Made by a program: the position numbers and the translations under genes. This document shows positions 61,768 through 63,329 of a stretch of DNA of 64,000 nucleotides, piece by piece (position 1 is the first letter of the stretch; every line of letters begins with the position of its first letter). The stretch is from NCBI GenBank assembly GCA_003665825.1, contig QPFY01000019.1, positions 124,001 to 188,000 on the forward strand, given 5' to 3'. This DNA comes from Microbotryum silenes-acaulis. Lineage: Eukaryota; Basidiomycota; Microbotryomycetes; Microbotryales; Microbotryaceae. Under the pieces are notes generated by a model that was not told where the DNA came from, did no database searches, and was given only the letters and a program-made list of their open reading frames with translations.

Positions 61768-63329
61768 TCATGGCCCAAGCCTGCGAATATCGGCCGAGCT
61801 CGCCTTGCCCTCTAGGATCAGTTCCGCCAGACACAAACCGGTGGCAGGACCTGAAAATATATAATTCCTCGTCCATCAGCTCAATATCCCGGATATTTCC
61901 ATATGTCCAATCGACTGACCATTCAAAATTCCCCAACAACTGTGTCCCGCGCCAACCCAAACGTTCTCCTCAATCCTACCAATCACCGGATCCCCACTCC
62001 CCACGGGGAGATAACAAGCCTGTTCAACCTCAATCGTAGCAGAATAAGGTCCATCATTCACGCTGAGATATTCGGGCGCTAGATCGGCGACTTGTTGGAT
62101 AATCAAGGCCGTGGCGGAGGGGTCGATCTCGACTTCAAAAGCGAGGGTGGGGAGTGCCGAATCGTCGGTTGGGCCGCAGGCGTAGGCTGTGCCATCCGGT
62201 CGGTTCTGTCAGAGACAAGCCAACGTCCGTAAGATTGGACGAAAGTGAGCGAGAGCGTCTGCATTACCCTAGAAGGTAGGAACTCGGGTTCACTGACATA
62301 GATCTCGGGCTCGCAAAACGACCCAGCCTTCTCCTTGATGCTCGTGAACAAGGCTTGAGCAGGCAAAGCCCTACTCTCCGCCGTCTTGAACACCACAGAA
62401 TGCGCTCGACTCCCTTCGATCCTACGCGTTCGGCCTCCTCCCTTGATCCCCAGTTGTTTGAGAAGGGATCCCGTCCATGGGCCGGCGGTGATGACAAGAC
62501 CGTCGGCTGGACCGAGACTCATCTCAGCAGATCTGGCGAACTTTTGTTCGCTCGCCTTGGAAGATCGTTCCTCTTGCCTCGGCGAATACTTGACCGTAAA
62601 TGAACCGTCCTCATTCTTATTCAACGCCGTCGCAGACCCATAAACCACCTTGACGTCCCCTTCCTGCAACATGATCTCGGCGAGCCCTTGCGTGAACAAC
62701 CTCGGATGAACCTGAGCCGTCGATTCTCGGGTGCCCAACACACTCGTCTCCCCCAACGCATCCTGGTTAAGCCAATCAAAGAAACCATTTTTATCCTTGA
62801 GTCTCTTGGAAGAGACGACGTCCTCACGTTTCTTGGTGATGCGGGTCATGTCGGCCGAGACGGAGAGGGTGTCGAGGGTGCGGTAACCCCATCTCCTTTC
62901 GCCATCATGCTCGTTGGCCAGGTCGCGGTGGAGTTTGTACGAGAGAGAAGAGAGGGAAGAGGTAGATGGTCCTGTAGCCCCAGGGTCGAGGCGATGCGTC
63001 AGTCAGATTTGGACTCTGATTCGTATGGGGCTCCCCCTTCGAGACTCTCCGCGAACTTATGAGCTACTGACCATGCCTGAAATCGCCCAGCGTGACACCG
63101 GCCATACTCATCAATGTCAGAGCTCCAATCACACACACGCTCTCTCGACTCACCAATCCAACGCCAACAACCCCCCAGCCTTTCCACTCGCCCCCGCAGC
63201 GATCCCACTCCCCTCAAGGATGGTCACGCTGATGCTTTGTCCATGTTTCTTGGCGAGTTGGGTCAGGTAATAGGCTGTACAGACGCCTTGGATCCCGCCT
63301 CCTATGATGAAAATTGAGGATGGGGTCAT
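61768..63329 (-). CDS. FAD-dependent oxidoreductase (DAO fold, TDA3-like) with a 5-nt microexon
   Basis: Exons: 63329-63154, 63076-63072 (5 nt, GCATG), 62971-62268, 62205-61920, 61850-61768, total 1254 nt and 417 residues. The N-terminal FAD site is SSIFIIGGGIQGVCTAYYL (GxGxxG) with TILE at the end of the second strand, then GASGKAGGLLALDWHGPSTSSLSSLSYKLHRDLANEHDG. The microexon supplies the H of WHG and splits W and G; skipping it would break frame. Later blocks: RWGYRTLDTLSV, VHPRLFTQGL, GLVITAGPWTGSLLKQLGI, QACYLPVGSGDPVIGRI, VWVGAGHSCWGILNGPATGLCLAELIL, ending ADIRRLGP. This matches fungal DAO proteins like yeast Tda3; the substrate is unknown. Confidence 0.88.

What the first reader, a model, noticed from the sequence alone, without database searches (positions are those of the whole stretch)
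63072..63076. A 5-nucleotide microexon in the TDA3-like FAD oxidoreductase
Two adjacent introns (63153-63077 and 63071-62972) have good donor and acceptor signals and leave only GCATG between them. Those five bases complete Trp, encode His and start Gly, giving the DWHGP junction expected for the DAO family. Direct joining of the flanking exons would shift the frame. All five exons then sum to 418 codons. Exons this short are rare and test how fungal spliceosomes define exons.
Basis: partly seen in the sequence, partly recalled or inferred. Interest (0 to 1): 0.75.

Follow-up and report, generated by a model that had tools for sequence, protein, structure and literature searches.

The report
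Five-base exon in smut-fungus oxidoreductase gene
A gene of an anther-smut-like fungus appears to contain an exon of only five bases that supplies a highly conserved histidine of an enzyme; it is a convincing further case of a known rarity, probably created when a new intron landed five bases in front of an older one.

Summary
The 5-nt exon GCATG (63076-63072, minus strand) is very probably real. Its flanking introns are canonical (GTGAGT...TTTCAG, 77 nt; GTCAGT...CTACAG, 100 nt). Of 34 candidate exons in the interval, five keep the frame and only GCATG restores the conserved DWHG of this TDA3-like DAO-family oxidoreductase. Frame restoration alone is weak evidence (17,218 of 20,000 shuffles contain some in-frame exon of 20 nt or less); restoring DWHGP is not (21 of 20,000). 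The annotated Microbotryum saponariae protein (391/407 identical) reads DWHGPSTSS too. Correction: the next intron starts at GTCAGT 62297, not GTAATG 62267, so the product is 407 aa (408 codons), not 417. Seven unspliced metagenomic ORFs run uninterrupted through DWH and then enter an intron at or within 1 nt of the second intron's site; one more (P0092) has neither intron. So the upstream intron looks like a lineage-specific gain that cut off five bases of exon 1. No RNA evidence was available. Fungal exons down to 1 nt are published (PMC12940212): new member of a known kind.

The parts
63154..63329 (-). Exon 1, 176 nt: from the start codon and GGGIQG motif to ...LALDW (ends after 2 nt of the Trp codon)
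   Evidence: homologs
63077..63153 (-). Intron 1, 77 nt, GTGAGT...GATTTCAG, branch-like CTGAC with A 40 nt from the end; apparent lineage-specific gain
   Evidence: no break at this place in the 12 exon-1 hits nor in P0059, P0082, P0092; no second copy found in the genome
63072..63076 (-). 5-nt microexon GCATG: last base of Trp59, His60 (CAT), first base of Gly61
62972..63071 (-). Intron 2, 100 nt, GTCAGT...GGCTACAG, branch-like CTGAC with A 31 and 27 nt from the end; phase 1; probably the older intron
   Evidence: donor inferred at or within 1 nt of this site in seven relatives; no second copy found
62298..62971 (-). Exon 3, 674 nt (corrected end), GPSTSS...EPEIY
62206..62297 (-). Intron 3, 92 nt, GTCAGT...TCTGACAG (corrected donor)
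61920..62205 (-). Exon 4, 286 nt, NRPDGTAY...WGILN
61851..61919 (-). Intron 4, 69 nt, GTCAGT...ATTTTCAG
61768..61850 (-). Exon 5, 83 nt including the stop codon

Best explanation
The gene encodes a 407-aa TDA3-like FAD-dependent oxidoreductase (Pfam DAO). Its mRNA includes a 5-nt microexon, GCATG, that completes Trp59, encodes His60 and starts Gly61. The exon most likely arose when a new intron (intron 1) was gained five bases upstream of the donor of an older intron (intron 2), isolating the last five bases of the old exon 1. Splicing is most likely by intron definition, one intron at a time: each intron has its own consensus donor, branch-like site and CAG acceptor and is of ordinary length, so no step needs factors bound across the five bases at once; removing either intron first fuses GCATG to a full-size exon. 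Inclusion is probably constitutive, since skipping truncates the protein. Shown: sequence, frame logic, protein conservation, sister-species protein. Inferred: actual splicing, order of removal, constitutive inclusion, direction of evolution. The stated confidence is for microexon and intron gain together; for the microexon alone I put about 0.9.
For: Of 34 AG...GT choices between exons 1 and 3 (at least 30 nt left on each side), five keep the frame and only GCATG restores DWHGP. Of the seven single-intron joins found that keep the frame (two GT, five GC donors), none uses the GTGAGT donor at 63153 and all seven delete conserved residues. D 105, W 108, H 98, G 103 of 120 homologs; the string DWHG is present in 89 of 120. 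DWHGP restored in 21 of 20,000 shuffles. M. saponariae protein P0001 is identical over DWHGPSTSS and 391/407 overall; M. intermedium P0002 has DWHG. GTCAGT is also the donor of introns 3 and 4 of this gene. Seven metagenomic ORFs run through DWH into a donor at or within 1 nt of the intron-2 site; none of the 12 exon-1 hits nor P0059, P0082, P0092 has a break at the intron-1 site.
Against: No RNA or cDNA. No DNA of any relative was available: whether M. saponariae shares intron 1 is unknown, its protein is a database gene model, and introns of relatives are inferred from read-through peptides. The inferred intron-2 donor varies in phase (1 in four, 2 in two, 0 in one), so exact homology of that intron is not shown, and it is not universal: P0092, P0127-P0130, P0125, P0131 and P0132 run through the site without a break. 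A species with intron 1 like this one would give an ORF of about 59 aa, shorter than the shortest hit (62 aa), so such relatives may have been missed. Intron 1 could be old and lost elsewhere. Bare motif counts in the window are near expectation (YAG-N5-GTNAGT 3 against 1.85, CAG-N5-GT[ACG]AGT 1 against 1.6, AGGCAYGGT 1 against 0.7).
Confidence: 0.68

Rival explanations
1. Same microexon, other history: both introns are ancestral and intron 1 was lost in the relatives sampled.
For: Intron loss outnumbers gain in Cryptococcus: 31 clear losses and no clear gain between the species, although one gene gained introns by repeat duplication within C. neoformans (PMC2395259, passages).
Against: No break at the intron-1 site in the 12 exon-1 hits nor in P0059, P0082, P0092, while seven of these 15 have an inferred intron at or near the intron-2 site.
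Confidence: 0.22
2. A broken gene: the intron pair marks a frameshift in a decaying or misassembled copy.
For: No transcript evidence; no second copy of the gene was found in the genome.
Against: The 407 codons are open and 391/407 identical to M. saponariae; Pfam DAO 139 bits, run on the 417-aa version.
Confidence: 0.04
3. A 35-nt exon instead: an upstream acceptor (GATGAG) in intron 1 is used with the same GTCAGT donor, giving LALDC-MAGVTLGDFR-HGPSTSS in frame.
For: It is one of the five frame-keeping choices and retains His60-Gly61-Pro62; it is the first AG after the CTGAC branch-like site, though only about 10 nt from its A.
Against: Trp59 (108 of 120) becomes Cys and ten residues absent from P0001 are inserted. 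The acceptor is GAG, whereas the four introns of the model end in CAG.
Confidence: 0.03
4. A nested twin intron (stwintron) that removes all 182 nt in two steps, with no exon between.
For: Stwintrons are known in fungi (listing and starts of abstracts only); two adjacent introns look similar.
Against: Removal of all 182 nt shifts the frame and stops after 80 aa, and the conserved His is lost.
Confidence: 0.01
5. An 8-nt microexon TATGGCCG (acceptor GATGAG, donor GTGTCA), giving LALDC-MAGPSTSS.
For: Keeps the frame without a stop.
Against: Loses Trp59 and His60 and is not the P0001 sequence.
Confidence: 0.01

Closest known systems
1-nt exon in Fusarium CYP621A P450 genes (PMC12940212, parts 1 and 2 of 3 read)
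   Same: An ultra-short exon of non-triplet length inside a conserved motif, found because flanking exons do not join in phase; omission breaks the protein; AG and GT on either side.
   Different: That exon is 1 nt, shared by 20 orthologs (the abstract's number; the text also says 24 genes) and supported by SRA reads of two species; its authors suggest base loss rescued by a cryptic exon. Here 5 nt, no reads, and relatives suggest intron gain next to an older intron.
Microexons in Phanerochaete chrysosporium P450 genes (PMC1184071, passages; also named in PMC12940212)
   Same: Basidiomycete; very short exons (shortest 6 bp there; an 8-nt gg/cac/gag exon in a conserved I-helix motif).
   Different: Different gene family and fungal class; slightly longer exons.
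20-nt microexon switch of Xlr2 in Trichoderma virens (PMC11121469, abstract and passages)
   Same: Fungal microexon of non-triplet length whose inclusion is needed for an intact domain.
   Different: That one is regulated by glucose; no evidence for regulation here.
Animal neuronal microexons dependent on SRRM4 and PRPF40A/PRP-40 (PMC11463390, passages)
   Same: The same physical problem: exon too short for U1 and U2 together; intron definition proposed.
   Different: Those are regulated, mostly cassette exons; here skipping would destroy the protein, and intron definition is taken as the fungal default from recall.
Fungal stwintrons (listing and starts of abstracts only)
   Same: Two introns removed one after the other within a short stretch.
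   Different: In stwintrons one intron lies inside the other; here five coding bases between them must be kept.

Membership tests
Microexon (exon of 30 nt or less) | Short exon with its own acceptor and donor, flanked by canonical introns | tested here: met
Microexon (exon of 30 nt or less) | Required to restore frame and a conserved motif | tested here: met
Microexon (exon of 30 nt or less) | Present in mature mRNA | not testable with these tools
   no RNA data; indirect support from the annotated protein P0001
Stwintron | Nested introns removed with no exonic base left between them | tested here: not met
   removal of all 182 nt shifts the frame; stop after 80 aa
Pfam DAO (PF01266), TDA3-like fungal oxidoreductase | DAO profile over its whole length | tested here: met
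   139 bits, cut-off 27.9, profile 2-353 of 353, run on the 417-aa version
Pfam DAO (PF01266), TDA3-like fungal oxidoreductase | GxGxxG dinucleotide-binding motif near the N-terminus | tested here: met
   GGGIQG at residues 10-15; its three glycines are invariant in the 30 sequences aligned (chosen from the 120 listed; the window's own protein not among them)
Pfam DAO (PF01266), TDA3-like fungal oxidoreductase | Oxidase activity and in vivo role of yeast Tda3 | not testable with these tools
   some homologs carry the name Tda3p or TDA3
Introner-type intron | Many near-identical intron copies in the genome | tested here: not met
   introns 1 and 2 each matched only themselves in 29.85 Mb; the tool skips simple repeats and very common words, so this is strong but not absolute
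SRRM3/4-dependent microexon programme | SRRM_C domain protein in the genome | tested here: inconclusive
   no match, but the search rang in none of the 14 control genomes either

The most novel reading that the evidence does not exclude
The microexon is the by-product of a recent intron gain in the Microbotryum lineage, five bases upstream of an old donor, while relatives still show the undivided exon. It would make Microbotryum a place to watch how a spliceosome tolerates a freshly made 5-nt exon, and whether skipping it (80-aa truncated product) is used as an off switch.
Probability: 0.5. Interest if true: 0.45.

Novelty: new member of a known kind. Interest (0 to 1): 0.35.

Why it matters
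Very short exons are often missed or misannotated (for plants, exons of 15 nt or less: PMC8831610, start of abstract), and each confirmed case shows that two splice events can be placed a few bases apart. A case with undivided relatives gives a testable route to an ultra-short exon (intron gain beside an intron), different from the base-loss-and-rescue route suggested for the 1-nt Fusarium exon (PMC12940212). It also warns that the reading frame alone is a poor criterion: 17,218 of 20,000 shuffles of this interval contain some frame-keeping mini-exon.

Tried and rejected
Rejected: single-intron solutions (the seven found that keep the frame delete conserved residues); 8-nt, 35-nt, 41-nt and 77-nt alternative exons; stwintron (frame); introner copies; paralogue or processed copy as a fossil cDNA (only the gene's own four blocks matched); origin by local duplication (one search reports one 12-nt direct pair and one 13-nt inverted pair in 62900-63340, neither linking the two introns).

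Led nowhere: SRRM_C search (no control rang); FF-domain search found six matches at two places of contig C9 (controls: 0 of 14 rang), so Prp40-type proteins are probably present, but this says nothing specific; species identification through the neighbouring ORF at 57766-60831 (one weak unnamed hit; full-length relatives were probably outside the length limits); the Cryptococcus and Rhizoctonia papers mention microexons only as an aligner setting. No structure prediction was run. The homologs were not checked one by one for annotation quality. Eight of the 120 (P0035, P0036, P0038, P0039, P0044, P0054, P0100, P0105) have no residue at Gly49 and mostly lack this part; they stayed in the counts, as misses where they have a gap or another residue. 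Unnamed rows among the 120 that run through both intron sites were not counted, because they may be intron-poor genes or cDNA.

Full report
What is there. The minus strand at 63329-61768 carries a five-exon gene: 63329-63154 (176 nt), 63076-63072 (5 nt, GCATG), 62971-62298 (674 nt), 62205-61920 (286 nt), 61850-61768 (83 nt with stop); 1224 nt, 407 amino acids. The two introns around GCATG are 77 nt (GTGAGT...GATTTCAG) and 100 nt (GTCAGT...GGCTACAG), each with a CTGAC branch-like element whose A lies 27-40 nt before its end. The exon completes Trp59 (TG|G), encodes His60 (CAT) and starts Gly61 (G|GA).

The correction. Both annotated Microbotryum proteins, P0001 and P0002, read EPEIYNRPDG. A strict EPE[IV]Y.RPD pattern is uninterrupted in 51 of 120 homologs; of the other 69, P0035, P0038 and P0105 carry extra residues before RPD, others have an uninterrupted variant such as APELYCRPD, and many do not hold RPD in that form and were not examined. 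In P0035 and P0038 the extra residues begin EIYVR and look like read-through of the same intron. The donor GTCAGT at 62297 is therefore the better one; it is also the donor sequence of introns 2 and 4.

Is it more than chance? Within the 182 nt between exons 1 and 3, 34 AG...GT choices with at least 30 nt on each side exist; five keep the frame without a stop, and only GCATG gives DWHGP. Dinucleotide shuffles that keep the outer splice sites show how weak frame restoration is: 17,218 of 20,000 contain some in-frame exon of 20 nt or less, 6,169 of 20,000 one of 5 nt, but only 21 of 20,000 one that restores DWHGP. Window-wide, YAG-N5-GTNAGT occurs 3 times against 1.85 expected, CAG-N5-GT[ACG]AGT 1 against 1.6, AGGCAYGGT 1 against 0.7 and AG-N5-GT 490 against 449.6 (20 shuffles), so the motif is not unusual by itself; its place is.

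Protein evidence. The protein search scored the 7,997 candidates that share most words and gave 2,025 matches; the 120 listed were aligned. D, W, H and G at the junction are found in 105, 108, 98 and 103 of 120; misses include sequences that lack this part. D and W are invariant, and H and G at least 90% conserved, in 30 sequences that I chose from the 120. The closest, P0001, annotated in Microbotryum saponariae, is 391/407 identical and has DWHGPSTSS letter for letter; M. intermedium P0002 (304/401) has DWHGASTSS. The protein is a Pfam DAO member (139 bits, cut-off 27.9) and the best solved match is a glycine oxidase (7cyx, E 1.1e-19 with the profile); in that alignment the conserved Trp falls on a Trp of 7cyx. 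The window is therefore from Microbotryum or a close relative (inference); the species was not identified.

Origin. Some database entries are plain ORFs from unspliced DNA and so show introns by reading into them. Five of the 12 entries found with exon 1 as query (P0121, P0122, P0123, P0124, P0126) and two from the first search (P0059, P0082) read ...DWH and then leave the family sequence. Enumerating the codons of these peptides, and accepting GTNNG[TC] near the H-G place, finds a donor at CAYG|GT (phase 1, as here) in four, one base later in two and one base earlier in one. On the far side, five of six N-terminal stretches checked (P0035, P0038, P0044, P0054, P0059) fit an AG acceptor in phase 1 and P0082 one in phase 2 (P0038 also fits another). 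Against a universal intron 2: the other seven exon-1 hits run through both sites without a break (four read DWTEG, three LALWA), and so does P0092, which reads DWHHSSTES and later into an intron-3-like stretch. What none of these 15 sequences shows is a break at the intron-1 site. The simplest history is an intron 2 that is older within this group and a gained intron 1, which cut off GCATG. A relative with intron 1 would give an ORF of about 59 aa; the shortest hit has 62, so such relatives could have been missed. No second copy of either intron was found in the 29.85-Mb genome, no processed copy of the gene and no local duplication linking the introns, so the source of intron 1 is unknown. 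Loss elsewhere cannot be excluded; Cryptococcus shows more loss than gain (PMC2395259, passages).

How it most likely works. Each flanking intron is of ordinary size and has complete signals, so each can be defined on its own; after one is removed, GCATG is part of a long exon and the other intron is ordinary. U1 and U2 cannot both sit on so short an exon, which is why intron definition aided by PRP-40 was proposed for animal microexons (PMC11463390, passages). FF-domain matches are present in this genome (six at two places; assignment to Prp40 is my inference). Failure gives short products: skipping 80 aa, intron-1 retention 59 aa, intron-2 retention 62 aa. Inclusion should thus be constitutive; regulation is possible but unsupported.

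Known or new. Fungal microexons are published: a 1-nt exon in Fusarium CYP621A with read support (PMC12940212, parts 1 and 2 of 3 read), a 6-bp exon as the shortest in Phanerochaete P450 genes (PMC1184071, passages), an 8-nt one mentioned in PMC12940212, and a 20-nt regulated one in Trichoderma (PMC11121469, abstract and passages). Nine literature searches on microexons, short exons, stwintrons, introners and Tda3 and one naming Microbotryum with microexon terms (40 of 147 papers listed, none of the 40 holding 'Microbotryum') showed me no report of this exon; the library lacks most subscription papers. The M. saponariae protein implies that an annotation already carries the right join, or that its gene lacks intron 1.

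The confidence of the best explanation was lowered from 0.9 to 0.68 because the statement joins two claims (microexon, about 0.9; origin by intron gain, less certain) and because P0092 and seven exon-1 hits without intron 2 had been left out as evidence against.

Verdict. A real-looking 5-nt exon, well supported by homology and not yet by RNA; a new member of a known kind with a plausible and testable origin by intron gain.

Noticed in passing
window 62297-62206 (minus strand): The next intron has two in-frame donors 30 nt apart (GTCAGT 62297, GTAATG 62267); the annotated Microbotryum proteins support the first, which shortens the protein by ten residues.
   Followed up: yes
window 63106-63072 (minus strand): An upstream acceptor (GATGAG) in intron 1 with the same GTCAGT donor would give a 35-nt in-frame exon; a possible minor isoform.
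   Followed up: partly
window 63068-63080 and 63214-63226: A 13-nt inverted repeat (85% complementary) has one arm over the microexon and the other in exon 1; short and possibly chance.
   Followed up: no
window 7168-14316: Long ORFs that look like pieces of mobile elements: a Copia-type polyprotein part (7168-9306), an integrase-chromodomain part (9828-11090) and a transposase-like ORF (12676-14316, minus strand); named from the translations by eye only.
   Followed up: no
P0082, P0121, P0124 versus P0059, P0122, P0123, P0126: The inferred intron at the HG site sits one base later or earlier in some relatives (phases 2 and 0 against 1), a possible case of intron sliding or repeated insertion at one site.
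   Followed up: partly
P0036 (Rhodotorula sphaerocarpa), P0039 (Meredithblackwellia eburnea): Named database proteins lack the conserved N-terminal part up to the HG site, so these gene models may have missed the first exon.
   Followed up: no
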